Assembly: GCF_001908375.1 (NCBI RefSeq)
Contig: NZ_CP017241.1
Span: 809,001 to 873,000 of the forward strand
Reading direction: 5' to 3'
DNA length: 64,000 nucleotides
From: Rhizobium etli 8C-3
Lineage (GTDB): Bacteria > Pseudomonadota > Alphaproteobacteria > Rhizobiales > Rhizobiaceae
How positions within the stretch are numbered: position 1 is the stretch's first letter; each line of letters opens with the position of its first letter. This document shows positions 5,288-20,483 of the stretch, one piece after another. Position numbers and translations under genes: made by a program. The notes beneath the pieces are model-generated. The model was not told the DNA's origin. It saw nothing but the letters and a program-made list of their open reading frames with translations, and did not search any database.

Positions 5288-7023
5288 TCATTCCGGAAGC
5301 CCCGCTAGGCGATAGCCAGCCACGATATGCTGGCGCACGTCTTCCGCCGGGAAAGGCTGCGATGCCGACCAGTGCCGGATGGTGAAGTGCGGGTTGCTTA
5401 TCATGAACATTTTCGCCTCCCAGCGCGCCTCCTCCAAGCGGCCAAGCTGCGCCAGACTCGCTGCCAGCAGGCGTCGTGAAGTCGTGCGATAAGTTTCGGG
5501 CCTGCGCAGCGTTTGGACCGCTGATTTGTAATCGCCGATGGAATATTGAGCCTGGCCCAACATCCAGTAATACCAACCGGGCGGATGAGGATTGAGCCGG
5601 AGCGCCTTCCGCACCTGCTCAATGGCTTCCGCAGGCCGCCCGTTTTCCGTCGTCAGTTCTGCCTGCATCGCCCATGCGTCGGCGTGGTTGGGGTCCAGCT
5701 TGTGGGCGGCGTTGAATTCGGCATCCGAATCCGCCCAGCGGCTCTCGTGGCCCAATATTACGCCCAATACCCAGCGATTCCCTGCATCGTTCGGGTCGAG
5801 TTCGACCGCGCGCTGTGCTTCGGCAAGGGCTTTTGCGCGGTTGGGATCCATCGGTTCGTCCCAGAACTCCCAGCCCAGCCAGAGGTTCAGTGCCAGCCAA
5901 CGGTGCGCCTCCGCGTATTCCGGATCGAGCGCGATTGCCCGGTTCAGCAGGAAAATGGCTTCTTTCGCGGTGAGCGCCGTTTGCAGGCCAAGGGCCCGCG
6001 CGCGCACACAGAGGTCATAGGCTTCCAGGTTGCTTGGTCTGTTGCGCGCCGGCGCTGCGATCAGGCGGCCCACCAAAGCTTCGACAATTTTGCCGGTCAC
6101 CTCGTCCTGAACGGCGAAGATATCTTCAAGGCTCCGGTCGAATCGTTCGGCCCAAAGATGGTCACCCGCGATCGCGTCGATCAGTTGGGCATTTATACGC
6201 ACCCGCCCGCTGCCCGCCGTGCACTCCCTTCAAGAAGATGGCGCACTCCTAGCTCGCGCGCGATGCGACGCACATCCATGTGCCTGCCCTTGTAGGCAAA
6301 TGCCGAGTTGCTGGCGATGACGAACAACTCACTGGTTCTCGACAGATCCGTGATCAGGTCTTCGGTGAGGCCATCGACAAATGCCTCCTGCTCCGGATCG
6401 TTGCTCATGTTCGTAAATGGGAGGACGGCGATGGAGGGCTTGGTGGGGAGCGGCAGCGGCGCTTTGTCCGCCGGCACGCCATCTTCCGATGCGGGCGACA
6501 ACCGAATCCGGTAGACGGACACCGGTTCGGCGACGTTCTTGATCGATTGCGGACCAAGTTCGTCGAAGCCGCAATCAAGCTTCCGCTTGACCTGGTCGTA
6601 GATGCCGCCGGAGACACAGATTTCTCCCGCCCCGGCCATCGCCTGAAGTCGCACGGCGACAACGACGCCATCGCCGAACAGATCGCCGGCCTCGACAACG
6701 ACGTCGCCCAGATTAATGCCGATATGAAGGTTGATTTGCCGGTCGGCAGGCATACCCTCGTTGGCGGCCACCATCCGCTTCTGGAGTTCGACGGCGCATA
6801 AGACAGCGTTCACAGCACTTCCGAACTCCACGAGAACGCCATCACCCATCACTTTTACGACACGGCCTTGGCGGTCGCGGACCAGTGGTTCGAGGATCTC
6901 CTTTCGCCGCCCCCTTAACGCGGCCAATGTTCCTTGCTCGTCCTGGTCCAGAAGTCGACTGTAGCCCACCACGTCGGCAGCCAATATGGCGGCAAGACGG
7001 CGCTGGGCTCGTTCTTCGGACAT
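5288..7023 (-). pseudogene. class III nucleotidyl cyclase with FlgO/TolB-like and TPR regions, frameshifted
   Basis: Two adjoining frames make one protein. The first (start 7023) gives the cyclase homology domain (AAILAADVVGYSRL, VMGDGVLVEF) and the beginning of the FlgO/TolB-N-like region (SIAVLPFTNMS). It stops just after LLEGSARRAAGG. The second resumes exactly where its paralogues continue (RVRINAQLIDA...) and carries TPR-type repeats to 5288. One missing base in a G-rich run near 6200-6215 explains the break. The usual catalytic Asn of GDGVNxAxRL is Val here (GDGVVVAVRL), so cyclase activity may already have been lost. Either the frameshift is real or it is a base-calling error in the G-rich run. 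Confidence 0.85.
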
Positions 7024-7493
7024 TTCACATTGCCTTCGTAGAACGCAGAGATCGGATTGTATGACGACTATTTCAAAAGTCTATTGGGGACTTCGAGGTT
7101 CGACCGCCAGCAGGCTACATGGGGTGATCCCGCCAGTCGATTGTCCCTTTGGGCTCATGACTTGCGCTTGGGCTTGCTTCGAAGAAGGTCCGCATTGGGT
7201 CGCAACGGGTCAGACTGCTTTGCGCCATCATTTCAGCCATTCGAGCAACCTCGGCGATTTTCTGAAAGCTGCCGGTCCGCTTGACCCATCCCGAAGTCGA
7301 CAAGTGGGTGGGTCGGCGGACAGGCTCGTCGGCGCCAACTCCTGCACGTCCCGGGATCCTGGGGGCTTCCCACTACAATGAAGCCTTTCGCTATGGTAGA
7401 CCTAGAATGCTGCGAACATGAAGAACCGCTGATGGTGGACGATCAACTGAACTCGTTCGGTTGACAATAGCGCAGTCCGGGGAGGAGGTCGCC
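7024..7493 (+). other. intergenic region, no gene seen
   Basis: These 470 bases lie between two divergent cyclase genes. I find no convincing frame, RNA or repeat. The promoters of both flanking genes are expected here. Confidence 0.5.
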
Positions 7494-8930
7494 ATGGCAT
7501 CGATCGACGAGAAGAACCTCGAAGAGAAGCTGACGGCGCTAGAGTCGGCCCGGACCTGGAGTGCGCGGCTCGTATCCAAGCTCGAGAGCAACATCCGTTC
7601 GGCAAGCGACGCCGAGCTCTTCCGCATCAATCCGATCAAATTCGCCGCCGACAAGAGCCTCAACGAGGAGGAGACGATTGTTCTCTTCCTGCACGCCACC
7701 GCCCTAGGTCTCTTCGATATGACCTGGATTCTGATCTGTCCGGTCTGCTCCTGTGTCATCGATAGCTTCCGGGCTCTCAAGAATCTCCGCAGTCACTGCC
7801 GCTGCACCCACTGCCATTTGGATTTCGTGGCGGCTCTCGACGACATGATCGCGATAACCTTCACCGTGAACCCGGCCATTCGCCGCATCTCCTATCACGA
7901 TCCGCAGACGCTGACGGTGGAGGATTATCTTTTCCGCTACAGCTCGACGAGTGAGGGCTTGATCCCGGACGGAACCCCTTTCGTCCACCTGAGGGAGATG
8001 CTGAGCCGCGGATTAGCCTATATCGAGCCGGGCGAGACGACCGCTTTTGAGATAATCGCAGAGGCTGGCATATTACATGGCAGCAGCTCCGACAGCGACG
8101 CAGGTATCACATTCATTGTCGATCCCGCGCTTCCGACTGGCGAACAGCGCATTGCAATCCGTCTTGACCTCGAGTCCAGCACGCCGGACGCGGGCACCAT
8201 CGCGGCCGGCAAGGTGATTTTCGAGATGTCCAATGTCGCGGACAAACGCATCGAGTTCGGGATCCTTCAACTGCCGCCCGGCGTCGACAGGCCGCCGCCG
8301 CTCCACTTCGCGCCGTTCCTCTCAGGGAAGCGGCTGCTCACGACCCAGACGTTCCGCGACCTCTTTCGCTCCGAGGTGATCCGCAGCCACGAAGGGCTCG
8401 GCGTCACGGACATCGCTCTCCTTTTCACCGACCTGAAGGGCTCGACTGCACTTTATGACCGGATCGGAGACCTGAATGCCTTTGCACTTGTGCAGCAGCA
8501 TTTTGAGCGGCTGCAGGACGTGACGGTCCGCCACAACGGCGCGATCATCAAGACGATCGGCGATGCGGTGATGGCAGCGTTCCTGAGGCCTGCCGATGCC
8601 GTGCGCGCGGCGCTCGACATGCGCAGCGAAATCGCCTCGTTCAACAAGCGGCAGCCAGACAAGGCTCTGATCCTCAAGATCGGCGTTCACAGAGGCGCGG
8701 CAATTGCGGTCACGCTGAACGAGCGCCTCGACTATTTCGGCCAGACCGTGAACATTGCTGCGCGCGTCCAAGGCCTTGCCGACGCCGACGAGATTTTTGT
8801 CAGCCAGGACGTTTACGACGCGACCGGGGTTCGCGACGGACTGGCGGCTTTTGCGGTCGACCCGAGAACTGCACATCTTCGAGGCGTGCGGCAGGAACTG
8901 CCGGTGTTTCGGGTGGGAGGGGCCGTTTAA
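7494..8930 (+). CDS. class III adenylate/guanylate cyclase with N-terminal zinc-ribbon (DUF5939-like) region
   Basis: This 478-residue protein is probably soluble. The N-terminal part contains a Cys cluster, CPVC at about 82-85 and CRCTHC at about 102-107, typical of a zinc ribbon. An all-beta region follows, like the DUF5939 segment found ahead of some bacterial cyclases. The catalytic domain starts near residue 305. It shows both metal Asp motifs (LLFTDLKGST, TIGDAVMAAF) and the Asn/Arg motif (GQTVNIAARV), so it looks active. The ATG at 7494 is chosen for its GGGGAGGAGG ribosome site. An upstream in-frame start at 7461 has none. It precedes the GTPase/cyclase cassette by 1 kb and need not be co-transcribed with it. 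Confidence 0.88.
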   Translation: MASIDEKNLEEKLTALESARTWSARLVSKLESNIRSASDAELFRINPIKFAADKSLNEEETIVLFLHATALGLFDMTWILICPVCSCVIDSFRALKNLRSHCRCTHCHLDFVAALDDMIAITFTVNPAIRRISYHDPQTLTVEDYLFRYSSTSEGLIPDGTPFVHLREMLSRGLAYIEPGETTAFEIIAEAGILHGSSSDSDAGITFIVDPALPTGEQRIAIRLDLESSTPDAGTIAAGKVIFEMSNVADKRIEFGILQLPPGVDRPPPLHFAPFLSGKRLLTTQTFRDLFRSEVIRSHEGLGVTDIALLFTDLKGSTALYDRIGDLNAFALVQQHFERLQDVTVRHNGAIIKTIGDAVMAAFLRPADAVRAALDMRSEIASFNKRQPDKALILKIGVHRGAAIAVTLNERLDYFGQTVNIAARVQGLADADEIFVSQDVYDATGVRDGLAAFAVDPRTAHLRGVRQELPVFRVGGAV

Positions 8931-8975
8931 GGCGAGTAGAGCGATTGGCCCACGGGACCATGCGTCAGAAAAGCA

Positions 8976-8993
8976 GTGTGTGTGTGTGTGTGT
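8976..8993 (+). repeat. (GT)9 dinucleotide tract
   Basis: Nine uninterrupted GT units lie 46 bases after the stop of the DUF5939-type cyclase gene. Such tracts can slip in replication. It lies outside any supported frame. Confidence 0.9.
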
Positions 8994-9048
8994 CGAACCC
9001 CCGATCACCGAAAACTCCCGAGGGAATTGGTTCGACCCGCTCTGTTGA

Positions 9049-9230
9049 CAACGCGACTTCGTTCGGGGAGGTCAAAGTGGCCAAGGTCAGCGCTGCGATC
9101 TATCTCAGCCCACCTGTGACGATGTCGTGGGGTTGGATGCTGTTTTCCGAACCGCTGACAACAGCGATGTTCGCGGGGCGCCCTGCACATTGCGGGGCCG
9201 CACCTCCCAGAACGATTTTCCGTGTTTCCA
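9049..9230 (+). pseudogene. EamA/DMT transporter, C-terminal fragment with frameshift
   Basis: The translation VSAAIYLSPPVTMSWGW followed by MLFSEPLTTAMFAG matches the last two helices of EamA-type drug/metabolite transporters (…YLxPPvTxxWaWxxFgEpLt…G). After MFAG a one-base shift restores GALHIAGPHLPERF, the expected closing helix. No start, promoter or upstream eight helices remain, so this is a relic. Confidence 0.6.
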
Positions 9231-9802
9231 AGTTAAGCGGTCAGCTATACGCCGTCATGGCAGCCGTTGGACACAGACTTATTCGATCCCGTAAGCAGGC
9301 GTTCGGACATTGTAGCCGCACGAGTTGCGCCCGCACCTTTCGGCTCCGCCATGCTCGTCGACATGACTTTCGTCGCCTAGCCGCTGCCGGGCCAGTTCGG
9401 CGAGTTCAATCGCCTCGACTTCAAGGTAAGTATGGCCCAAATGGCAACGCAACAGCCCGTCTACCGACTTGGAATCCTGAGGCCGCTCCAGGGGCGCTAC
9501 GACCCCTTCTTGACGTCTGGAAGGTTCGTCACGCCATCGGCGAGTGCGCGCGCAAACGCCCGCAGTGTTGCCGTGTAATTGGTGAAGCGCTTCTTATCGA
9601 GCTTGATGGGACCGCCCTCCTTGAGCGCGATATTGCGCCCTGCCGCCGTCGTTACTCGAGTGATCGCCTTGCGGATGAATACCGTGATGCCGCGAGCGCA
9701 GAGATTGCGGACCGTCACTGCTCGACGACCGTGCCGCTTGCCGCGATTGATCCCCGACCAGTCGCGGCCGCCCGCTAGATGGCATCGCCCCAAACTTCCA
9801 TT

Positions 9803-9821
9803 GCTACGTCAGTGACGTAGC
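9803..9821. promoter_or_regulatory. 19-bp perfect dyad upstream of the GTPase/cyclase cassette
   Basis: GCTACGTCAGTGACGTAGC is a nine-base inverted repeat around one central base. It sits about 125 bases before the first gene of the cassette. It could be an operator; the binding protein is unknown. It does not match the CRP-type TGTGA-N6-TCACA consensus. Confidence 0.4.
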
Positions 9822-9946
9822 GCTCGGCTGCATCACGAATCGGCTTGAGTCAAGAAGATTCCGGCTTGTGGGCCGGCTATTTTGCTGACATTATTACCTG
9901 TTGACGGGGTTGCACCGTGGCAGGTGTTCAAATGGGGGGCATAAGG

Positions 9947-10612
9947 ATGGCAAAGGAACCTTCGAGTACCGCTTCTTCTGCGAATAAGGCGGACGAAAAT
10001 CTGATAGGTAATGCAGAGGGAAACGGGCTGAACTTCATGGCGGCCCAGGCCCGCGAGGGCGGGATCTCCGGTGACGCTGTAGGTGTCGACAAGATCCGCG
10101 ATCTGCTGTTCGGCAACCAGATGCAGGACTATGACCGCCGTTTTTCCAAGCTTGAAGACCGGTTCTTGCAGCGCTTTAAGGATGTCGAATCCGAGGCCAA
10201 GCGCAATCTTGAAGCGTACGAGTCAAATGCAAAGAAGCAGGTCGAATCGCTCGCGGCGCAATTGCGGAGCGAAAAAGATGCACGAGCCGAGGCCGACAAG
10301 GAGATTGACCGGAATCTTCGCGAGCAAAATCAGGCACTTGAAAAGCAGGTGCGCGCGTTGTCGGATCAATTGAGCGAGCTTGAGCGCGACGTTGCGGACC
10401 GGATAAATCGAAGCGATCATTTGCTGCGTGAGGAAATCAAGCAAAAGAATGAAAGCATTCAGATGCTAATGGAGAAAATGTTTTCCGATCTCAGCAACGT
10501 CAAGACCGACAGAAATCTTTTGGCTGGCCTGTTTGTCGAGGTTGCAAAATGCATAAATCAGGATTCCGGCGGTAGCAAGAGCAACTCGGAACGTAGCTGG
10601 AAAGTGAGTTGA
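9947..10612 (+). CDS. coiled-coil protein of unknown function, first gene of the GTPase/cyclase cassette
   Basis: It encodes about 221 residues. A Ser/Ala/Asn-rich N-terminal tail is followed by the motif VGVDKIRDLLFGNQMQDYD. Then comes a long charged heptad region (roughly residues 60-190) rich in Glu, Lys, Arg, Gln and Leu that should form a coiled coil. The C-terminus is MFSDLSNVKTDRNLLAGLF plus a short tail. There is no signal peptide or membrane span, so it is probably cytoplasmic, perhaps a scaffold for the adjoining membrane protein or GTPase. Starts at 9917 (GTG) and 9932 (ATG) are also open; 9947 is preferred for the GGGGGG tract 7 bases upstream. The gene ends 7 bases before the next one. 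Confidence 0.75.
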   Translation: MAKEPSSTASSANKADENLIGNAEGNGLNFMAAQAREGGISGDAVGVDKIRDLLFGNQMQDYDRRFSKLEDRFLQRFKDVESEAKRNLEAYESNAKKQVESLAAQLRSEKDARAEADKEIDRNLREQNQALEKQVRALSDQLSELERDVADRINRSDHLLREEIKQKNESIQMLMEKMFSDLSNVKTDRNLLAGLFVEVAKCINQDSGGSKSNSERSWKVS

Positions 10613-10619
10613 TGGGAAC

Positions 10620-13600
10620 TTGACGTCGACCGTCGACCCAATCAGACTTCCTCAAAAAGCCGCCTCGAACGATACCGAGATCGATCGCGCGGCTCTGGCT
10701 ATTCTTTTGGTCGAAATTGCTCGGAACATTGATCCGGACCATCATGCGCGTTTCGACGGAGTTCCAACCGCCGATCGTCGCATGGAAACGCTGCGCCAGT
10801 TGCTGGTCGGCCGCGAAATTTCGGAGCTTTCACGAGTTACGCATCTGCTGGGCGAACCGGAGCAGCTTGCGGAAGCAGTGGGCGGCGTTCTTCCCAGTGC
10901 AGCCGCACGGGCGCCTCATGCGCAGCTCGGCGAGGCCCTTGCGCCAGCCGTCGAGAGGGCTGTGCAACGGTCGATCCAGAAGAGCCCGCGCACGCTGACG
11001 GATATATTATACCCGGTGTTTCTGCCGGCAATTCGCAAGTCGATCGGGGAAAAGATCGACCAGACCTTTCAGTCGCTGAATGAGACTTTAAGACATATAT
11101 TTACCTGGCATGGGCTCAAGTGGAGATTTGAATCTTGGAGAACTGGTGCCAGCTTCTCGGAAGTTGTTCTGAAGCATTCTCTTGTCTATCGTGTAGAACA
11201 TGTCTTTCTCATTAACCGAAATTCGGGGCTTTTGATCGCGCATGTAACTGCCGATAATGCAACGAGCGAGGATCCTCAACTCATTTCTTCGATGCTCAGT
11301 GCAATTCAAGACTTTGTTAAAGACTCATTTAACGAGAAAGAACAGAGCGGCCTGGACACTATCCGCTTTGGGGAGCTTCGTCTCTGGTCAGAAGTTGGAC
11401 CGTTTGCGACCTTGGTTGCGGTGATCCGGGGAAATCCGCCAGAGGAATTACATGAAATAGTTCGCGATGTGTTGCTTCGCATCCATGATGAATACTCACA
11501 GGCTTTAGAGCAGTTCGACGGCGACGGTTCTCAGTTAGCCGGCATAGAGACGCAGTTGCAGACCTGCGTTGAACTGAAGCAGGAGGACTCAAACCAGGGA
11601 TTTCCGTGGCTGGTGGTGGCTGCAGTCCTGCTGGTTTTGATTCCGGCAGGCGGTTGGTTCTTTCTTTCCTGGCAATCCGGGCAGCGCTGGCAAGCCTATG
11701 TTTCGCGACTGGGGACCCAACCGGGCATCATCGTCGCCCAACAAACGGTGCGCGATGGACATTTCTACATTTCCGGCCTGAGAGACCCGCTTGGCGCCGA
11801 CCCGCAGTCGCTGTTGTCTGGAACGCATGTCGATCCCGCCCGCGTTCATTCGCAATGGCAATTCTATCAGAGCCTTGAGCCGGAGTTCGTGCTGAAGCGG
11901 CTGACGGCGTCGCTGGCTCCGCCGGATACAGTACGACTTTCGATCGTCAAGGATCGCATCGTTGCCGAGGGTGAGGCTGCCGACACCTGGATAGATCGGG
12001 CGCGCGCAGCGGCCCGACAGCTTTCGGCAGGCGGACCGGAATTCGACATCTCCAAGGTTCGTGATGTGAGCCCCGAAGCACGCGCGGCGGAGCACTGGCA
12101 GGCCTATGTGTCGCGACTTGAGGCCCAACCGGGCATCATCGTTGCGGAACAAAAGGTGCGCGATGGCCAATTCTACATTTCCGGCCTGAGAGACCCGCTT
12201 GGCGCCGACCCGCAGTCGCTGTTGTCTGGAACGCATGTCGATCCCGCCCGCGTTCATTCGCAATGGCAATTCTATCAGAGCCTTGAGCCGGAGTTCGTGT
12301 TGAAGCGGCTGACGGCGTCGCTGGCTCCGCCCAAATCTGTTCTGCTTTCGATCGTCCAGGGTCGCATCGTTGCCGAGGGTGAGGCTGCCGACACCTGGAT
12401 AGATCGGGCGCGCGCAGCGGCCCGACAGCTTTCGGCAGGTGGACCGGAATTCGACATCTCCAAGGTTCGTGATGTGAGCCCCGAAGCACGCGCGGCGGAG
12501 CACTGGCAGGCCTATGTGTCGCGACTTGAGGCCCAACCGGGCATCATCGTTGCGGAACAAAAGGTGCACGATGGCCAATTCTACATTTCCGGCCTGAGAG
12601 ACCCGCTTGGCGCCGACCCGCAGTCGCTGTTGTCTGGAACGCAGGTCGATCCCGCCCGCGTTCATTCGCAATGGCAATTCTATCAGAGCCTTGAGCCGGA
12701 GTTCGTGTTGAAGCGGCTGACGGCGTCGCTGGCTCCGCCGGATACAGTACGACTTTCGATCGTCAAGGATCGCATCGTTGCCGAGGGTGAGGCTGCCGAC
12801 ACCTGGATAGATCGGGCGCGCGCAGCGGCCCGACAGCTTTCGGCAGGCGGACCGGAATTCGACATCTCCAAGGTTCGTGATGTGAGCCCCGAAGCACGCG
12901 CGGCGGAGCACTGGCAGGCCTATGTGTCGCGACTTGAGGCCCAACCGGGCATCATCGTTGCGGAACAAAAGGTGCGCGATGGCCAATTCTACATTTCCGG
13001 CCTGAGAGACCCGCTTGGCGCCGACCCGCAGTCGCTGTTGCCTGGAACGCATGTCGATCCCGCCCGCGTTCATTCGCAATGGCAATTCTATCAGAGCCTT
13101 GAGCCGGAGTTCGTGTTGAAGCGGCTGACGGCGTCGCTGGCTCCGCCCAAATCTGTTCTGCTTTCGATCGTCCAGGGTCGCATCGTTGTCGTGGGTGAGG
13201 CTCCTGCCAACTGGATCAACCGGGCGCGGGCCGCCGCAGAACAACTTTCGGCGGACGGAGTGGTTCTGGATGTCTCGCAGCTGCGTGAGCTGAACCTTGC
13301 AGAACTTAATTATTTGAGAGAGGCCATCCAGGCGACCGATATTTTCTTCTATTCCGCCAAAGCTGTGCCGGGACCAGAGCAGATGCCGGTCCTCGACAGG
13401 TTGGCGGATCAAATAAAGGAATTCGCCAAAAATGCCCGCAAGTCAGGCGTAACAGCGCGGTTCATGTTGACCGGCCATGCAGACGCCACGGGCCGTGAGA
13501 CGGCCAACGTGTCGATCAGCGCCGCCCGCGCCGAGGCAGTTCGTGCGCTTCTCAACAAGCGCGGCGTCGCTCCGGAACTGCTGCTGGTTCGGGGCGCTGG

Positions 13601-13685
13601 CACCTTTGAGCCGGTGGTGCCTGAAAATAGTCGAACTGGGAGCTCCACCAATCGCCGGGTTTCGATTACGGTAAGCCTGGAGTAG
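10620..13685 (+). CDS. membrane-spanning OmpA-family protein with four BON-like 136-residue repeats
   Basis: This 1021-residue protein has four parts. Residues 1-325 form a cytoplasmic helical domain that I cannot assign to a family. One transmembrane span covers about 327-351 (GFPWLVVAAVLLVLIPAGGW...). Four 136-residue repeats run from about 356 to 900, each with a GLRDPLGADP motif and a BON-like strand-helix part (LSIVxxRIVAEGEA...WIDRARAAARQL). An OmpA C-terminal domain runs from about 905 to 1021 (LTGHADATGRETANVSISAARAEAV) and would bind peptidoglycan. A periplasmic anchor thus joins a cytoplasmic domain through one helix. The start is TTG with weak GGGA upstream, so the exact N-terminus is uncertain. 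It is followed 15 bases later by the GTPase gene. Confidence 0.85.
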   Translation: MTSTVDPIRLPQKAASNDTEIDRAALAILLVEIARNIDPDHHARFDGVPTADRRMETLRQLLVGREISELSRVTHLLGEPEQLAEAVGGVLPSAAARAPHAQLGEALAPAVERAVQRSIQKSPRTLTDILYPVFLPAIRKSIGEKIDQTFQSLNETLRHIFTWHGLKWRFESWRTGASFSEVVLKHSLVYRVEHVFLINRNSGLLIAHVTADNATSEDPQLISSMLSAIQDFVKDSFNEKEQSGLDTIRFGELRLWSEVGPFATLVAVIRGNPPEELHEIVRDVLLRIHDEYSQALEQFDGDGSQLAGIETQLQTCVELKQEDSNQGFPWLVVAAVLLVLIPAGGWFFLSWQSGQRWQAYVSRLGTQPGIIVAQQTVRDGHFYISGLRDPLGADPQSLLSGTHVDPARVHSQWQFYQSLEPEFVLKRLTASLAPPDTVRLSIVKDRIVAEGEAADTWIDRARAAARQLSAGGPEFDISKVRDVSPEARAAEHWQAYVSRLEAQPGIIVAEQKVRDGQFYISGLRDPLGADPQSLLSGTHVDPARVHSQWQFYQSLEPEFVLKRLTASLAPPKSVLLSIVQGRIVAEGEAADTWIDRARAAARQLSAGGPEFDISKVRDVSPEARAAEHWQAYVSRLEAQPGIIVAEQKVHDGQFYISGLRDPLGADPQSLLSGTQVDPARVHSQWQFYQSLEPEFVLKRLTASLAPPDTVRLSIVKDRIVAEGEAADTWIDRARAAARQLSAGGPEFDISKVRDVSPEARAAEHWQAYVSRLEAQPGIIVAEQKVRDGQFYISGLRDPLGADPQSLLPGTHVDPARVHSQWQFYQSLEPEFVLKRLTASLAPPKSVLLSIVQGRIVVVGEAPANWINRARAAAEQLSADGVVLDVSQLRELNLAELNYLREAIQATDIFFYSAKAVPGPEQMPVLDRLADQIKEFAKNARKSGVTARFMLTGHADATGRETANVSISAARAEAVRALLNKRGVAPELLLVRGAGTFEPVVPENSRTGSSTNRRVSITVSLE
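11685..13316 (+). repeat. four tandem 408-bp coding repeats arranged as a duplicated dimer
   Basis: Repeat units begin at 11685, 12093, 12501 and 12909, exactly 408 bases apart. Units 1 and 3 encode PPDTVRLSIVKDR, while units 2 and 4 encode PPKSVLLSIVQGR. The array is therefore an 816-bp two-unit block copied once. The last unit diverges near its end, where it joins the OmpA domain. Confidence 0.93.
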
Positions 13686-13700
13686 TGCGGAGCTAGGATA

Positions 13701-14192
13701 TTGCAAAAAAAGATCTGCATGTTGGGTGGGTTCGCTGTCGGAAAGACGAGTCTGGTTCGCAGGTTTGTGCAAAGCATCTTTTCAGATACCTACTTGACCA
13801 CGGTGGGAGTGAAAATCGACAAGAAGAGTGTCGCACTCCCGGACAAAACCGTGGATCTAATTTTGTGGGATTTGGCCGGCGAAGACGATATCGGCTCATT
13901 CCGCGTCAGCAATGTGCGGGGTGCGTCCGGGCTCGTGCTTGTCGTCGATGGAACCCGCGCCGCTACTCTTGCCGTGGCGCTCACTCTGCGCGAGCGGGCC
14001 GAGGCCGAATTCGGCGCTATGCCGTTTGTATTGCTGTTCAACAAATCCGACCTGGCCGATCGGTGGGCAATATCGGATAGTGAGATTAACGAACTCAGGC
14101 AACTTGGATGGCAAATCTATCGAACAAGCGCGCTTTCGGGTGAACATGTTGATGATGCGTTTCGTCAGCTTGCTTCGATGGTTACCAAATAG
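13701..14192 (+). CDS. Ras/Rab-like small GTPase
   Basis: It is 163 residues, the length of a bare Ras-fold G domain. All G motifs are visible: G1 GGFAVGKTSL, G2 Thr in YLTTVGVKI, G3 WDLAGEDD, G4 NKSD, and G5 TSAL. The positions equivalent to Ras Gly12, Gly13 and Gln61 are Phe, Ala and Glu. That suggests slow intrinsic hydrolysis or a partner-supplied catalytic residue (inference). There is no C-terminal Cys for lipid attachment and no membrane span. The start is TTG with GGAG 8 bases upstream. It lies between the OmpA-type gene (15-base gap) and the adenylate cyclase (3-base gap), a strong operon signature. Confidence 0.9.
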   Translation: MQKKICMLGGFAVGKTSLVRRFVQSIFSDTYLTTVGVKIDKKSVALPDKTVDLILWDLAGEDDIGSFRVSNVRGASGLVLVVDGTRAATLAVALTLRERAEAEFGAMPFVLLFNKSDLADRWAISDSEINELRQLGWQIYRTSALSGEHVDDAFRQLASMVTK

Positions 14193-14195
14193 ACC

Positions 14196-15266
14196 ATGCA
14201 TAGATTGCCAAAAGAAGTCGGAAGCTGGATTTACGATTTCTTCTACAATGAGCACTCTGTCGCATATCTGAAAATTGACGCCCAGCTTTGCATAGCTGCG
14301 AAGGGCGGTAACGTTAAACACTACGGGCTCTCATCGCTTCGCATTGGCAAGCCTGTTGCCGATCAGCTTGAATTTATGGAAGGTTTGCTGCCTTGCCCGG
14401 AGCTTCCATATCATATGGCCATGGTCGAACTGCCCAGCGGGCGTGTTGCGGACCTTCATCTTTTTGCCGGCAATGCCTGCGTGTGGCTGCTCTTTCTTGA
14501 CGCCACTGCCGAACGCGACAACAAGCAGCGGCTTCAACAGAAGGCCTATGAAATGACGCTCCTGCAAGAGAGGGAGCGGCAACTCAACGAGAAATTACAA
14601 TCGACGAACGAGGCGTTGAGGAAGAGCCAGGAGGGATTGTCGCGTGAATACCAGCGCGCCGAATCCCTACTCCTCAACATTCTTCCGGCGTCGATCGCGG
14701 AGCGGTTAAAAGCGCACAAAAAAATTGCAGACAACCACGCAGAGGTGAGTGTGCTTTTTGCCGACATCGTCGGTTTTACGGAAAGAACGCGGAGCGTCGG
14801 AGCCGTGACGACGCTCGCTATCTTAAATTACTTCTTCAAGGCGGCGGATCGGCTCTCGGAACGATACGGCTGCGAAAAGATCAAGACAATCGGCGATTGT
14901 GTGATGGTGGTCGCTGGCCTGCCCACCGCGCGATCCGATCATGCAGAAGCCCTCGCGCACTATGCACTTGAACTGCGGAAGGCGGTTAAGCGCGTACGCT
15001 TCGCAGGAGAACCGCTGAGACTCAGAATTGGAATTCACTCGGGACCAATCGTCGCTGGCGTCATAGGCAAAAGGCGCTTCGCCTATGACCTGTGGGGCGA
15101 GACCGTTAATCTCGCCTCACGCATTCAAACGTCCGCGGAGCCCGATGAGATCCGTATTTCGGATGCAACTCACCACCTGCTTGGACCAAAATTTGCTTGC
15201 GACCTACTCGAGGAAACGGAATTGCGTGGTACAGGTCGTGTGCGAATGTGGCGGCTCTCGGCTTGA
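14196..15266 (+). CDS. adenylate cyclase with PAS-like N-terminus and coiled-coil linker
   Basis: This 356-residue soluble protein has a PAS-like sensor fold at about 15-108. A coiled coil covers about 110-165 and ends in LLLNILPASIAERL, the linker motif common before class III catalytic domains. The catalytic domain covers about 180-356. Metal Asp residues lie in VLFADIVGFTERT and GDCVMV. The purine-selecting pair is Lys (KIKTIGD) and Asp (YDLWGETVNLASRI), which favours ATP. The transition-state Asn and Arg are present. It is expected to make cAMP. It lies 3 bases after the Ras-like GTPase gene, which may control it. Confidence 0.92.
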   Translation: MHRLPKEVGSWIYDFFYNEHSVAYLKIDAQLCIAAKGGNVKHYGLSSLRIGKPVADQLEFMEGLLPCPELPYHMAMVELPSGRVADLHLFAGNACVWLLFLDATAERDNKQRLQQKAYEMTLLQERERQLNEKLQSTNEALRKSQEGLSREYQRAESLLLNILPASIAERLKAHKKIADNHAEVSVLFADIVGFTERTRSVGAVTTLAILNYFFKAADRLSERYGCEKIKTIGDCVMVVAGLPTARSDHAEALAHYALELRKAVKRVRFAGEPLRLRIGIHSGPIVAGVIGKRRFAYDLWGETVNLASRIQTSAEPDEIRISDATHHLLGPKFACDLLEETELRGTGRVRMWRLSA

Positions 15267-15299
15267 TTTGCCGCTTGGCCGCCGCCGACGTCCCGAGTG

Positions 15300-15702
15300 A
15301 ACTAGGTTGCGCGACGGGGATCGAACGATGCGATTTCGTCGTTGCCGATTTAGATGCCCGGCTGATTGCAATTCGTCCGCACATCCCGGATCAATTGCGA
15401 AACTGTCGGACGGTTTCGCGTCAGGTAGCATTTGCTAAGGGTAACGCGGATGATCAGGCCGGTCGCGTTTACGGTCGACTAGAGAGGTGATCGTCCCAGC
15501 TGATCGAAACAGTTTGATAAGGCGGTAAACCCGTTGATCGGCTGACGTCGAGCTCAGTTGTAAGTTGTTTCACGTCTGCGGCGGTCATCGGACCAGTTCG
15601 ATGCTTCAGGAATTCCCGAATGCCGTCTGCGCGTTTGCACGCTTCATCTCAAAGCGCTTCATCGACTTCATCAGGAAATGCGTCAATTTGCCAAGGCACC
15701 AT
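15300..15702 (-). pseudogene. Mu/TniA-like transposase, N-terminal remnant
   Basis: A degraded reading starts at about 15702. It runs through VDEAL-(stop)-DEACKRADGIREFLKHR and MTAADVKQLTTELDVSRST. A one-base shift then leads to VYRLIKLFRSAGTITSLVDR, and later YLTRNRPTVSQLIRDVRT and FDPRRAT. This resembles the N-terminal helix-turn-helix region of Mu/TniA-type DDE transposases known from rhizobia. There are at least one TGA in place of Trp, one frameshift and two further stops. The catalytic core is missing; the remnant ends within about 35 bases of the cyclase stop codon. Confidence 0.6.
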
Positions 15703-15916
15703 CGATTATCTCGATCGCCTGAATCTCCCAAAAGCCAAGTCAAAATCTCACATTAACTGCTAAATCCCAAATTAAGTGGCACGGCAATCAATTGAAATCA
15801 TTGGCCAACGAGTCTTACATTTAAAAACAAAGCGACACTCCTCACAGCCCTACCCGCCGGCATGACCGCGACATCGTCGAATTACGGTCAGGTTTCTCGC
15901 ATAGCGAAATGAGTCG

Positions 15917-17710
15917 TCACGGTGGCAGGCCTGCGTTTCGCAAACCATCGGCCCATCGTGCGGCGTCTTCCGGTCGCCGGATCGGGAAGAAATCGTTGAG
16001 GCTGGAGAGGCGGAAATCGGGATCAAGCTGACGCAATCGTGTCATCGCCTCCGTAGCCTCTGGAGCTTGTCCAGCCAGTGCGTGGCTTGCTGCAGCGACG
16101 CAGGTTGCGATGAAGTGGACCGGCTGCTCACGAATGGCCGCGTGCGCCCATGATGACGCATCCGCGTATTGGCCAGCAAAGAAGTAGGCGGCGGCCATTG
16201 CGGCTTGCGCATTACAAATCTGGGGGTCTTGTGGGTTCAGCCGCATGGCCCGCGTGAGATGATCGATTGCCCCCTCCGGTTCGCCAAGCCAAATCCTGGC
16301 CCACCCGCTGAACAGCCATGCTGAGGCCAAATTGGGATTGAGCCCAAGAGCACGTTGCAATAAGTCTGCGCCATAATCGTGTGCGCCAAGAACATACGCG
16401 AAGGCGATTCCAGCGGTGCAGAGCGCCACCGCATCATCCTTGCCCAGGGCCGCTGCATGCCGGGCCAGCCGCTCGGTTTCGGCAGCCTCCTGCACGTGAT
16501 CGACCATCCAACCACTTGCCTTCCGCTGAGAATAGCAGCGCGCCGCCATGCCGTAAGCCGCAGCAAATTCCGGATCGAGTTCGATGGCGCGGTAAAAGAG
16601 CCGCAGAGCCTCATTGTTGGTTTCTCGGCTCCAGCAATGCAAGGCTGCCAAGCCCCGCAGGAAGTAATCGTAAGCGTCGAGGTTCTCGGTAGGCTTGTGC
16701 TTGGCCCGCTTGATCTCAGCCTGCTCGAGCTTCGGTCCGATGGCGCCGACCACGCTCGAGGTTACTCGGTCCTGCAGTTCGAAAATGTCTTCCAGTTCCC
16801 CTTCAAAGCGATCCGCCCAAATATGTACGCCCGTCGTGGCCTCAACAAGCTCGGCAGATATGCGCACTCGATTGGCCGCCCTGCGCACGCTGCCTTCCAG
16901 CACGTAGCGCACGCCTAATTCGCGCCCGACCTGCTTCACGTCGACAGCGCGCCCCTTGTACGTGAAGCTGGAATTGCGGGCGATAACGAAGAGCCAGCGA
17001 ATGCGCGACAGCCCGATGATAACCTCTTCGACGATGCCGTCGCCAAAATAGTCCTGTGCTGGATCGCTGCTCATGTTCCCAAACGGCAGTACTGCGATCG
17101 ATGGCCGGTCCGGTAACGCGGGTTCAGGCGCCCGCAACGGGATGATCTGCTCGAGGTGCGCTCGGAAGGTCCTCAGCGGGCGCGCGATATTCTTAAGGTG
17201 GTGCAAGCCCATATCGGCAAAACTAATATCGACCTTGCCATCGATCTGTCGGTATACGTCTTCGGAGATGCAGATTCCGCCGGCCTCGGAAATCTCCTCA
17301 AGCCGGGTCGCCACGTTGACACCGTCTCCCAGAATGTCATCGCCCTCGATCAGGACGTCGCCGAGATTGATTCCGATGCGGAACAGCATCCGTTGATCGG
17401 CGGGTGCCACCGCATTTCGCTCCGCCATTAACTTCTGGATGGCCGCTGCGCACGCGACGGCCGCGACGACCGAGGGGAACTCCAGTAGCACGCCGTCGCC
17501 TATGGTCTTTACAATCCGACCGCCGTGGTCTGTGATAATCGGCGAGATGGCTTCGCGGTGGCCCCGCAGCGCACGCGCCGTTCCGGCTTCATCGACTCCC
17601 ATCAGCCGACTGAAGCCCACGACGTCGGCAGCCAGAATAGCTGCCAGTCTGCGTTCCACCTGGGGCTGGCCCACGGACTCGTACCTTTCTTCCAGTTTTA
17701 AGGCACGCAC
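15917..17710 (-). CDS. class III nucleotidyl cyclase with FlgO/TolB-like and TPR regions
   Basis: This 597-residue cytoplasmic protein has a cyclase domain at about 20-190 (AAILAADVVGFSRL, KTIGDGVLLEF, GDGVNVATRL), so the metal Asp residues and the Asn/Arg pair are intact. A region starting SIAVLPFGNMSSDPAQDYFGDG resembles the FlgO/TolB-N segment of this architecture. A TPR array then runs from about 340 to the end. The start is GTG at 17710; an in-frame GTG at 17674 behind GAAAGG is also plausible. It is a paralogue of the genes at 5288-7023 and 18711-20483. A near-palindrome, GAGCCCCCCATGGGGCGCTC, lies just upstream (17719-17738). Confidence 0.9.
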   Translation of the reverse strand: MRALKLEERYESVGQPQVERRLAAILAADVVGFSRLMGVDEAGTARALRGHREAISPIITDHGGRIVKTIGDGVLLEFPSVVAAVACAAAIQKLMAERNAVAPADQRMLFRIGINLGDVLIEGDDILGDGVNVATRLEEISEAGGICISEDVYRQIDGKVDISFADMGLHHLKNIARPLRTFRAHLEQIIPLRAPEPALPDRPSIAVLPFGNMSSDPAQDYFGDGIVEEVIIGLSRIRWLFVIARNSSFTYKGRAVDVKQVGRELGVRYVLEGSVRRAANRVRISAELVEATTGVHIWADRFEGELEDIFELQDRVTSSVVGAIGPKLEQAEIKRAKHKPTENLDAYDYFLRGLAALHCWSRETNNEALRLFYRAIELDPEFAAAYGMAARCYSQRKASGWMVDHVQEAAETERLARHAAALGKDDAVALCTAGIAFAYVLGAHDYGADLLQRALGLNPNLASAWLFSGWARIWLGEPEGAIDHLTRAMRLNPQDPQICNAQAAMAAAYFFAGQYADASSWAHAAIREQPVHFIATCVAAASHALAGQAPEATEAMTRLRQLDPDFRLSSLNDFFPIRRPEDAARWADGLRNAGLPP

Positions 17711-18710
17711 TATAGCACGAGCCCCCCATGGGGCGCTCGGCTCAATTTCGAAAGTCCTTGGAAGAAGGCCGGTGCGTCGCCATCCAGCCCCTCTCTTGCT
17801 TTTCGACTAAGGTGTGAAGGCAGCTAATCCTGCTTGGTCACGTTCATTTCGCGCATCGCGCGCATGGCAAACAGGTCGCAATGACCGCGTTGGCGGAGCT
17901 GCCTGCCTCTGATCTGAATGGCATTGCGGCAAAGCCATCCTTTAGCGCACACTCGACGGCCTCGCGAAATCTGTCCCGCACAGCCATCCCCCAGTCATCG
18001 TCTTGTCAGGGCGGTCGAATCTCGCTGAATCGCGCGATCGAAGCCTACAGTCATATTTCGTCCCCACCTGCTGTAAAGGGCAATGTATTCCAATATTTCA
18101 CCTCTTTCTATTTGTCAGCGCCGATCAAATACACCACGACCGCCGCTTCGATCGCGGTCTTGCTAGGCCTTCGGCGACAGCGATACGGCCGGCGGACCTG
18201 CCGTCTACCAGAACAAGCCCAGGCTACGGTCGTATTGGTCAACGTGGCGGCCATCCCGCCGCCTGACCGACACTGCGCCCGAATTCGCTAGGGGCGCCAG
18301 TTCGTAAAGAATCGCAGAGGAACTTCCGCTCCGGACCGTCAGCGAAGTGTCCGCTTGTTGCTGCTTCGTCCCGAACCCCGAAGGCAGGTACCGGCCTGTC
18401 GCACTCGCTCGCTGCTCGAACGGCAGCTTCCGGCAAACGGCATAGGTCCTTGAATGTCGAGATGTGGGCGGTTGCGGATCGGCCAGTTCGGGGTGGGAAA
18501 CGGAATGGCAGGTTTCGGGCGGCTACGCCGCGAAAGCTGCCTTTCACCGGGCCAACGAGCTTCGGCCGGGAAGCGCCCGCATGTCGGCCGTAGAGGGCGG
18601 CTTCGCAGCTTCCTGAAAGCAGACCTTGCTGTCGATCACGCCCGCACTGGCTATTGCTCATCCTCTGTGCAAACGGCGGCAACAGGTTCAAGATCGGACA
18701 TATTCACCCG
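17711..18710 (+). other. 1-kb region without a supported gene
   Basis: Frames of 136 codons (17881-18291, plus) and 150 codons (18239-18691, minus) are open, but their residue composition is that of shadow translation and no motif is visible. It separates two paralogous minus-strand cyclase genes. Confidence 0.5.
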
Positions 18711-20483
18711 TCATTGTACGACCCCGGCATTGCGTAGTCCCTCCAAGACGAGCTCGAAATCGGCGGGGTTCTTGAAGGGCAGGACTTTGCGACGGTATTC
18801 CAATGAATAGTCGGGATTGACGCGCAGCACCTCTTGCCACGTCGCGCGAGCCTCTTCGAAACGGCCGAGGTGGCCGTAGCAGGCGGCCAGAAGCGCGCGC
18901 GAGACATCGGTGAAGCGGTTGCGGCTCACGCGCTGCAGCAACAGTTCGACGGCCTCTTCGTACCTTCGCAGTTGAAACAAGGCCAAAGCCTGAAAGTGGA
19001 GAACGACATCCGGAAAGTACGGGTTCAGGACCCTCGCCCGATCGAAATAGGCGAGTGCCTCCTCGGATCTGCCTGAATAGATTAGTGCCTCGCCGAGGCT
19101 AACCTGCCCTTCGGCGAAGTTCGGATTGAGGACTATCGCACGCTCGGCCTCGCTGATGGCTCTATCGTGCTGTCGCGAGTAAAGCTTGACCACACTCAGT
19201 GCCCAGTGTGCAACGGGATCGCTATCATCCCGCGCTACCGCCAGCGTCGCAGCCTCTTCGGCTTGCTCGATAGAGCGCTGCGGCGACGCGCTCCACCGGT
19301 TCAGGTAGTCGAGCCCGTGGGTAAGGGCGAGGAAGGCGTGCGCTGAGGCGAAGTTCGGGTCCAGTTCGACGGCACGTTGCAAAAGGTCGCGAGCGTCGCT
19401 GTTCGTTTGCTTCGTCAGCCGGTGCCACAGCTCCCGGCCGCGCAAGAAGCAGTCATACGCCTCGGGGTGCCGGGTCTGCCCCGGCGCCAGTCTTTTCCGA
19501 TCGCCCTCTGTCAGGTTGACCGCCAGTGCGTCGACAATCTGCTGTGTGACATCGTCCTGAACCGCGAATATGTCGGTGAGCTCGCGATCAAACCGCTCCG
19601 CCCATAGATGCCCGCCGGTGGTCGCGTCGATGAGCTGCGCGGTGATGCGTACCCTGTTCCCCGATTTGCGTACGCTGCCCTCAAGTACATGCCGCACGCC
19701 GAGCTTCGTGCCCACCTCCTGCACATGGACGTTCTTGCCCTTGAAAGTGAACGACGAATTGCGGGCGATGACGAAGAGCTGCGACAGCTTCGATAGCGCC
19801 GTAATGATGTCTTCCGAGATGCCGTCGGCAAAGTAGTCCTGTTCAGCGTCACCGCTCATGTTGGCGAACGGCAGGACGGCGATCGACAGCTTCGGTGACA
19901 CCGCCGTCGCCGGTTGGCTCGTCGGCGTTTCCGAGCTCCCGGCTGCTTTGGTCCCGGCGCTGCCGACTTGCAGTGAATAGACCCGGATCGGCTCGGCGAT
20001 GTTCTTGAGTTGCGTGTTGCCGAGATCGCTGACCGAGAGGTCGAGCCTCGCCTTGACTTGGCGATAGGCATCCTCGGACAGGCAGATCGCGCCCGCCGCG
20101 GCGACGCCCTCCAATCGCGAGGCGATGTTGACGCCGTCGCCCATCAGATCGCCGTCGCTTTCCTCGACGACGTCGCCCAAATGGATACCGATCCGGAATT
20201 CGATGCGACGGTCCTGCGGCACGCCGTCATTGCGCTCCACCATACCGTTCTGCACCTCAATGGCGCAGCGCACGGCGTCCACCACGCTGCGGAACTCGAC
20301 CAGCGCACCATCGCCGGTTCGCTTCACCACCCGGCCATGGTGCACGGCGATCGTCGGATCGATGAGGTCGCTGCGCAGTGCCCGCAACCTCGCCAGGATG
20401 CGGTCCTCGTCGGCGCCGGCAAGCCGGCTGTACCCAACCACGTCCGCGGCCAGGATTGCAGCCAGCTTTCGGGTCTCGCTCAT
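18711..20483 (-). CDS. class III nucleotidyl cyclase with FlgO/TolB-like and TPR regions
   Basis: This 590-residue cytoplasmic protein has a cyclase domain at about 1-165 (LAAILAADVVGYSRL, RTGDGALVEF, GDGVNIASRL), with the residues needed for metal binding and catalysis. The FlgO/TolB-N-like region (SIAVLPFANMSGDAEQDYFADG) covers about 200-310, and TPR repeats fill the C-terminal 240 residues (ALSVVKLYSRQHDRAISEAE and similar). The ATG at 20483 has GAGGAGA upstream with good spacing. No membrane span is seen, so the input is likely a protein partner of the TPRs. Confidence 0.93.
   Translation of the reverse strand: MSETRKLAAILAADVVGYSRLAGADEDRILARLRALRSDLIDPTIAVHHGRVVKRTGDGALVEFRSVVDAVRCAIEVQNGMVERNDGVPQDRRIEFRIGIHLGDVVEESDGDLMGDGVNIASRLEGVAAAGAICLSEDAYRQVKARLDLSVSDLGNTQLKNIAEPIRVYSLQVGSAGTKAAGSSETPTSQPATAVSPKLSIAVLPFANMSGDAEQDYFADGISEDIITALSKLSQLFVIARNSSFTFKGKNVHVQEVGTKLGVRHVLEGSVRKSGNRVRITAQLIDATTGGHLWAERFDRELTDIFAVQDDVTQQIVDALAVNLTEGDRKRLAPGQTRHPEAYDCFLRGRELWHRLTKQTNSDARDLLQRAVELDPNFASAHAFLALTHGLDYLNRWSASPQRSIEQAEEAATLAVARDDSDPVAHWALSVVKLYSRQHDRAISEAERAIVLNPNFAEGQVSLGEALIYSGRSEEALAYFDRARVLNPYFPDVVLHFQALALFQLRRYEEAVELLLQRVSRNRFTDVSRALLAACYGHLGRFEEARATWQEVLRVNPDYSLEYRRKVLPFKNPADFELVLEGLRNAGVVQ

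What the first reader, a model, noticed from the sequence alone, without database searches (positions are those of the whole stretch)
9947..15266. Four-gene cassette: coiled coil, OmpA/BON membrane protein, Ras-like GTPase, adenylate cyclase
The genes are packed with gaps of 7, 15 and 3 bases. They encode (1) a cytoplasmic coiled coil, (2) a protein with cytoplasmic domain, single membrane span and long peptidoglycan-anchored periplasmic part, (3) a Ras-fold GTPase and (4) a PAS/coiled-coil adenylate cyclase with ATP-type substrate residues. Seen: gene order and motifs. Known: Ras controls adenylate cyclase in yeast, and prokaryotic Ras-superfamily GTPases of unknown role exist. Inference: envelope state is passed through the OmpA protein to the GTPase and on to cAMP synthesis, an analogue of Ras-cyclase control.
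Basis: partly seen in the sequence, partly recalled or inferred. Interest (0 to 1): 0.85.

Follow-up and report, generated by a model that had tools for sequence, protein, structure and literature searches.

The report
Ras-like GTPase system with adenylate cyclase
A soil bacterium carries a compact four-gene signalling cassette, of a type described from genomes in 2014, in which a Rab/Ras-like GTPase sits between a wall-anchored membrane protein and an enzyme that makes cAMP; relatives in other phyla keep the switch and swap the enzyme.

Summary
In detail: genes, order and gaps of 7, 15 and 3 bases are as stated. The cassette is not new in kind. Wuichet & Søgaard-Andersen (PMC4316618, section 18 read) described this neighbourhood for "Group 1 Rup" GTPases, with a GGDEF/EAL or histidine-kinase output bearing an invariant glutamine. 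Here the output is a class III adenylate cyclase.

Added here: (1) The OmpA protein's "unknown" cytoplasmic domain is predicted to have a longin/roadblock fold, that of MglB and of Rab exchange-factor subunits. (2) The output's N-domain is a PAS fold plus signalling helix. Its Gln115 is invariant in 89 of 89 outputs across six enzyme classes; none of 117 GTPases has the usual catalytic Gln61. (3) In 398 Pseudomonadota genomes all 47 N-domain hits lie directly 3' of such a GTPase. (4) Outputs are swapped; the window's cyclase clade groups with PP2C systems.

Best reading: envelope state sets the GTPase through the longin domain, and the GTPase controls cAMP synthesis through the PAS-helix. Binding, direction and Gln115's role are inferred. 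GTPases without an adjacent output also lack Gln61, which speaks against a universal glutamine-in-trans mechanism.

The parts
9947..10612 (+). Coiled-coil cytoplasmic protein, 221 aa (component 1)
   Evidence: ORF; similar genes found 5' of the OmpA-type gene in relatives; invariant G56, nearly invariant R51, F55, K186, D188, R189, L192 in a 32-row alignment
10085..10126 (+). Conserved N-terminal motif VDKIRDLLFGxQM
   Evidence: A9; weak profile match to the N-terminus of the OmpA-type protein, E 0.0016, probability 16%
10502..10555 (+). Conserved C-terminal motif KTDRxxLAxLFxExA
10620..13685 (+). Peptidoglycan-anchored transmembrane protein, 1021 aa (component 2)
11184..11588 (+). Cytoplasmic longin/roadblock-fold domain (residues about 189-323)
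11610..11666 (+). Single predicted transmembrane helix (residues 331-349)
   Evidence: hydropathy maximum 2.53
11685..13316 (+). Four periplasmic repeats of 136 aa
   Evidence: exact 136-residue spacing; 100-129 of 136 residues identical between copies
13374..13655 (+). OmpA peptidoglycan-binding domain
   Evidence: PF00691 E 2.8e-12, residues 919-1012
13701..14192 (+). Rab/Ras-like small GTPase of the Rup kind, 163 aa (component 3)
   Evidence: PF00071 E 3e-27; best solved relative by sequence Rab23, E 5.5e-24
13869..13883 (+). G3 motif DLAGE: Glu61 where Ras has the catalytic Gln
   Evidence: 0 of 117 GTPases have Gln here, Glu in 92; codons checked
14196..15266 (+). Output protein: PAS, signalling helix and class III adenylate cyclase, 356 aa (component 4)
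14253..14504 (+). PAS-fold domain (residues 20-103)
14505..14612 (+). Signalling helix (residues 104-139)
14538..14540 (+). Invariant Gln115 (codon CAG)
   Evidence: 20/20, 117/118 domain hits, 89/89 outputs; lies away from the helix's hydrophobic stripe; codon checked
14730..15260 (+). Adenylate cyclase catalytic domain
   Evidence: PF00211 E 1.2e-50; ATP-type residues by alignment to AC9

Best explanation
This is a Group 1 Rup-type G-protein signalling system with a cAMP output. A transmembrane protein anchored to peptidoglycan by its OmpA domain reads the state of the envelope through a repeat-built periplasmic arm. It carries that state to a cytoplasmic longin/roadblock domain, which (as in MglB, TRAPP or Mon1-Ccz1) binds the Rab/Ras-like GTPase and sets its nucleotide state. 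The coiled-coil protein helps to assemble or place the complex. The GTPase docks on the PAS and signalling helix shared by the family's outputs and so switches the homodimeric adenylate cyclase. The invariant Gln115 on the outer face of that helix is part of the docking site and may supply the catalytic glutamine that the GTPase lacks. Shown: gene order, domains, predicted folds, conservation, exclusive adjacency, output swapping. Inferred: binding, direction of signalling, sign of regulation, exchange or GAP activity, Gln115's role, the envelope signal.
For: Four-gene order conserved in Pseudomonadota and other phyla. Output N-domain 47 of 47 directly 3' of a Rup-like GTPase in 398 genomes. 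The N-domain stays while the enzyme changes: histidine-kinase ATPase 26, cyclase 24, sigma-54 activator 8, PP2C 6, GGDEF 5, EAL 5, HD 5 of 89. N-domain identity follows GTPase identity (r 0.886 over 1770 pairs), with almost no extra effect of sharing the same output (+0.018). Predicted longin/roadblock fold of the OmpA-type protein. Gln115 invariant while Gln61 is absent. Gln115, residue 118 and Leu122 lie away from the hydrophobic stripe.
Against: Five of 52 GTPases have no adjacent output N-domain; all five were fetched (L041, L043, L044, L046, L069) and all lack Gln61, so a Gln from the output cannot be the general answer. 19 of 116 loci lack a detected output N-domain and 18 lack the OmpA-type one (some are contig ends). 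Seven of 54 OmpA-N hits have no GTPase hit beside them: two are matches of 58 residues only, five are longer. The OmpA-N model is weak overall (pLDDT 65.4, pTM 0.44), and the sequence profile alone reaches only E 0.37 to a roadblock protein. No complex was modelled. GTPase/HD-GYP pairs without an OmpA-type gene in the DNA held exist (L064, L120). Correlated identities could reflect shared descent alone. The hydrophobic moment is modest (0.24-0.52) and assumes a regular helix.
Confidence: 0.6

Rival explanations
1. Gln115 is a structural residue of the PAS-linked signalling helix (helix register or PAS-helix junction). The GTPase acts elsewhere and gets its hydrolysis help from the longin domain or from its own conserved Glu61.
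For: GTPases with no adjacent output N-domain also lack Gln61; MglB, a roadblock protein, acts as a GAP through switch-I contacts (passages of PMC11016934; that it supplies no Gln is recalled).
Against: Gln115 and Leu122 lie 116-144 degrees from the hydrophobic stripe, i.e. probably exposed. Gln115 is invariant across unrelated enzymes, while mean column identity in the output alignment is 9%.
Confidence: 0.35
2. The longin domain is a scaffold or localiser (as Ragulator is for Rag GTPases) and not an exchange factor or GAP; it keeps GTPase and cyclase at the inner membrane near peptidoglycan contacts.
Against: The divergent subtype keeps a small upstream gene, longin-OmpA and GTPase without an adjacent output, so the longin-GTPase link seems basic; the five best Foldseek hits are Mon1-Ccz1 and MglB, a GEF and a GAP.
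Confidence: 0.3
3. Reverse flow: the cyclase's PAS domain senses a ligand and acts as GAP on the GTPase, whose real target is the envelope protein.
For: Gln sits in the output and is missing from the GTPase.
Against: Very different enzymes occupy the output slot. Of eight stand-alone N-domains not cut by a contig end, six are followed by a second N-domain joined to an enzyme, which fits a downstream branch better.
Confidence: 0.12
4. Co-transcription without a direct functional link.
For: No interaction data exist here.
Against: 47 of 47 exclusive adjacency, order kept in loci from several phyla, N-domain tracking the GTPase.
Confidence: 0.03

Closest known systems
Group 1 Rup systems (Wuichet & Sogaard-Andersen 2014, PMC4316618)
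   Same: Coiled coil; conserved domain, membrane helix and OmpA; Rup GTPase without G3 Gln; output with N-terminal invariant Gln (section 18 read whole; other passages).
   Different: They name GGDEF/EAL or histidine kinase as typical output; here adenylate cyclase, and in relatives also sigma-54 activators, PP2C and HD-GYP. They call the OmpA protein's domain unknown and count 0 of 121 Rup sequences coupled to MglB; here it is predicted longin/roadblock. Their list of Group 1 taxa names no Alphaproteobacteria, so this lineage may be unclassified in their scheme.
MglA/MglB polarity switch
   Same: Small Ras-like GTPase with a roadblock-fold partner.
   Different: The conserved G3 Asp is kept in GTPases other than MglA, and MglA has Thr78 there (abstract start of PMC3000849); here Asp57 is in 117 of 117. 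The partner is membrane-spanning and wall-anchored.
Actinobacterial conservons (CvnA-D)
   Same: Operon of a signalling enzyme, a roadblock protein, an unknown protein and a GTPase.
   Different: MglA-type GTPase and a membrane histidine kinase; no OmpA domain is mentioned there.
Eukaryotic Rab-GEF modules with longin/roadblock subunits (TRAPP, Mon1-Ccz1, CPLANE)
   Same: Longin fold next to a Rab-like GTPase.
   Different: Exchange activity unproven; bacterial, single transmembrane chain with peptidoglycan anchor.
Ras control of yeast adenylate cyclase Cyr1 (recalled)
   Same: Ras-fold GTPase and class III cyclase.
   Different: No RA domain in the Pfam scan; proposed link through a PAS-helix; cyclase exchangeable with other enzymes.

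Membership tests
Group 1 Rup system | Single-domain Ras-superfamily GTPase of 150-240 aa with Asp in G3 | tested here: met
   163 aa, PF00071; Asp57 in 117 of 117
Group 1 Rup system | G3 catalytic Gln absent | tested here: met
   Glu61; 0 of 117 have Gln
Group 1 Rup system | Neighbouring cytoplasmic coiled-coil gene | tested here: met
Group 1 Rup system | Neighbouring protein with conserved domain, membrane helix and OmpA domain | tested here: met
Group 1 Rup system | Output enzyme whose N-terminal region has an invariant Gln | tested here: met
   Q115, 89 of 89. That this is the paper's Gln is inferred; its logo was not seen
Group 1 Rup system | Output typically GGDEF/EAL or histidine kinase (typical, not defining) | tested here: not met
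   Adenylate cyclase; relatives include both typical classes
Group 1 Rup system | GTPase falls in the paper's Group 1 clade | not tested
   The paper's sequences and supplementary table were not available here; its Group 1 taxa list names no Alphaproteobacteria
MglA family | Thr in place of G3 Asp | tested here: not met
   Asp57 in 117 of 117
Longin/roadblock domain | Fold: five-stranded sheet with flanking helices | tested here: met
Longin/roadblock domain | Sequence-profile match | tested here: inconclusive
   Only PDB hit up to E 10 is a roadblock protein, E 0.37
Longin/roadblock GTPase regulator | Binds the GTPase and changes exchange or hydrolysis | not testable with these tools
   Needs biochemistry
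PAS domain | PAS fold | tested here: met
Class III adenylate cyclase | Catalytic domain with both metal Asp, substrate Lys/Asp, transition-state Asn/Arg | tested here: met
   PF00211 E 1.2e-50; residues by alignment to AC9; roles recalled
   No BON among matches at E <= 1; weak similarity cannot be excluded

The most novel reading that the evidence does not exclude
A general plug-in G-protein receptor of bacteria: a transmembrane, wall-anchored longin-domain exchange factor, a Rab-like GTPase that cannot hydrolyse GTP well alone, and exchangeable output enzymes whose shared PAS-helix is effector and GAP at once by supplying the missing catalytic glutamine in trans. The adenylate-cyclase version would be a bacterial counterpart of Ras-controlled cAMP synthesis, and the longin/Rab-like pairing would be a bacterial parallel or forerunner of eukaryotic Rab-GEF modules.
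Probability: 0.3. Interest if true: 0.88.

Novelty: new variant of a known kind. Interest (0 to 1): 0.62.

Why it matters
The 2014 paper finds eukaryotic Rab/Ran/Ras/Rho proteins very similar to Group 1 Rup GTPases and says none had been characterised. I found no later experiment on them in the held library. A predicted longin/roadblock partner and a shared PAS-helix docking element turn an unknown operon into a concrete, testable switch. A cyclase output gives an easy enzymatic read-out. If right, bacteria have an envelope-to-second-messenger G-protein pathway with swappable outputs (cAMP, c-di-GMP, phosphorylation, sigma-54 transcription).

Tried and rejected
Categorically new four-gene cassette: rejected because PMC4316618 section 18 describes the neighbourhood. 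MglA family: rejected on G3. BON repeats: no Pfam match. Sequence-only recognition of the OmpA-N domain: E 0.37. Sequence-only recognition of the output N-domain in PDB: only implausible hits such as Nop2, replaced by the PAS fold match. Viral carriage of the OmpA-N domain: no relative confirmed in viral contigs. Coiled-coil against OmpA-N profile comparison: only a 32-column motif, probability 16%, left as a lead. A GTPase-output complex was not modelled: the structure tool returns no coordinates, so the Gln115-to-nucleotide distance could not have been read.

Rows dropped and limits before counts. and A8: one search listed 90 output references after leaving out 22 loci as near-copies or fragments; two (L088 opposite strand, L146 far hit) were left out and the window added, giving 89; 74 GTPases; 17 loci dropped as near-copies or fragments, and loci without a classified enzyme left out; 60 rows (the same 17 loci dropped, and first outputs scoring under 60 bits). 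In the 116 loci at least two contigs occur twice (L054/L071, L065/L076). In one search one of 54 rows (L127) shows G at the Gln column through an insertion; the HMM alignment gives Q there. The HMM was built from rows that all had the Gln. The searches scored at most 10 and 6 candidates a genome, so weak unlinked hits could have been missed. One search kept the best 80 of 573 confirmed stretches. Enzyme labels come from my own seeds: one search shows that L130, L127 and L133, unlabelled there, are a PP2C protein and two histidine kinases by Pfam, and that the cyclase label of L080's first output has no Pfam support at E <= 1 (48 bits to one cyclase seed), so it is unsure. The regular-expression cyclase mark of L098 was false (PAS).
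Full report
What is there. Four genes lie on one strand at 9947-10612, 10620-13685, 13701-14192 and 14196-15266. Pfam gives OmpA, Ras and Guanylate_cyc for the last three. The first is a coiled coil with no family above its curated cut-off. The window belongs to a 7.3-Mb genome with one copy of the GTPase. By protein hits the host is close to Rhizobium/Mesorhizobium.

It is a known kind. Section 18 of PMC4316618 (read whole; other passages) describes Group 1 Rup GTPases with three conserved neighbours: a cytoplasmic coiled coil, a protein with an unknown domain often followed by a membrane helix and OmpA, and an output enzyme, typically GGDEF/EAL or histidine kinase, whose N-terminus has an invariant Gln. 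The authors noted that this Gln might stand in for the one missing from the GTPase. Their Table 1 counts 0 of 121 Rup sequences coupled to MglB. Their list of Group 1 taxa names no Alphaproteobacteria, so the window's lineage may be unclassified there. No experimental work on these systems turned up in searches of the held library; I saw listings only, except the papers cited.

How regular it is. In 199 genomes of the family the GTPase appears in 6 at E <= 1e-10 (the window's own among them, two divergent), and in none of the three other genomes listed for the genus. In 398 Pseudomonadota genomes it appears in 49, the output N-domain in 44 and the OmpA-N domain in 51. By position, 47 of 47 output N-domains lie directly 3' of a GTPase, and 47 of 54 OmpA-N domains lie 5' of one; of the seven others two are short fragments. 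Of 52 GTPases 42 have both neighbours and none has neither. A scan of genome contigs gave 80 further loci (the best of 573 confirmed) in many phyla. Over 116 loci, 85 have GTPase, OmpA-N and output N-domain, 13 lack the output, 12 lack OmpA-N and 6 lack both; several of these end at contig edges.

Outputs are swapped. Of 89 outputs, Pfam finds HATPase_c in 26, Guanylate_cyc in 24, sigma-54 activator in 8, SpoIIE/PP2C in 6, GGDEF in 5, EAL in 5 and HD in 5. Some operons carry two outputs, for example cyclase then kinase in cyanobacteria (L087, L095, L097), or a stand-alone N-domain then a kinase (L111, L115, L134, L143, L148). On a tree of 74 GTPases the window's clade of nine cyclase systems joins five PP2C systems of Variovorax/Limnobacter (99/98), and output type needs at least 13 changes. 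Rhodopila (L130), left out of the tree as unlabelled, has a PP2C output and is still nearer to the window (GTPase 61%, N-domain 51% identity). N-domain identity follows GTPase identity (r 0.886, 1770 pairs, 0 of 500 shuffles as high); sharing the same enzyme adds only 0.018. Shared descent explains part of this.

The GTPase. G3 has Asp57 in 117 of 117 and never Gln at 61; Glu stands there in 92. The GTPases without an adjacent output (L041, L043, L044, L046, L069; also L045) lack Gln61 too. So the output's Gln cannot be the general catalytic answer.

The cyclase. It aligns with both halves of AC9; D190, D234, K230, D298, N305 and R309 are in place, so a homodimer with two ATP-type sites is expected (roles of residues recalled).

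Judgement. Confidence is high for system identity, good for the folds, moderate for GTPase-to-output control, and low for the Gln-in-trans chemistry.

Noticed in passing
window 6193-20483: Five class III cyclase domains lie within about 14 kb (genes 6193-7023-, 7461-8930+, 14196-15266+, 15917-17710-, 18711-20483-), with two more 20-25 kb upstream of the window's start; the genome has 39 in 7.3 Mb.
   Followed up: partly
window 11685-13316: The periplasmic arm is four near-identical 136-aa repeats. Many relatives are about 613, 749, 885 or 1021 aa long, i.e. they differ by steps of one repeat, as if arm length varied by recombination.
   Followed up: partly
window 10085-10126, 10502-10555 and the N-terminus of 10620-13685: The coiled-coil protein and the OmpA-type protein share short look-alike motifs (IRxLLxG; by eye also DRxxLAxLxxExA), possibly a common docking peptide (profile match of the first: E 0.0016, probability 16%).
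   Followed up: partly
L041, L043, L044, L045, L046: A divergent subtype in relatives of the window's order and family has longin-OmpA and GTPase, and in L041, L044, L045 and L046 a small upstream gene with the IRxLLFG-like motif, but no detectable output N-domain nearby.
   Followed up: partly
L063, L064, L120: GTPases paired with an HD-GYP output; L064 and L120 have no OmpA-type gene in the 8 kb or more held upstream, while L063 ends too close to judge.
   Followed up: no
L111, L115, L134, L143, L148: Cyanobacteria have a stand-alone PAS-helix protein of 133-137 aa right behind the GTPase, then a kinase with a second such domain.
   Followed up: partly
window 9001-16500: The cassette region is a little lower in GC (blocks 0.55-0.57, one 0.61) than the 9 kb before it (0.59-0.64), but blocks at 21-30 kb are 0.555-0.593, so this is weak; the cassette is absent from the three other listed genomes of the genus, which fits transfer or loss.
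   Followed up: no
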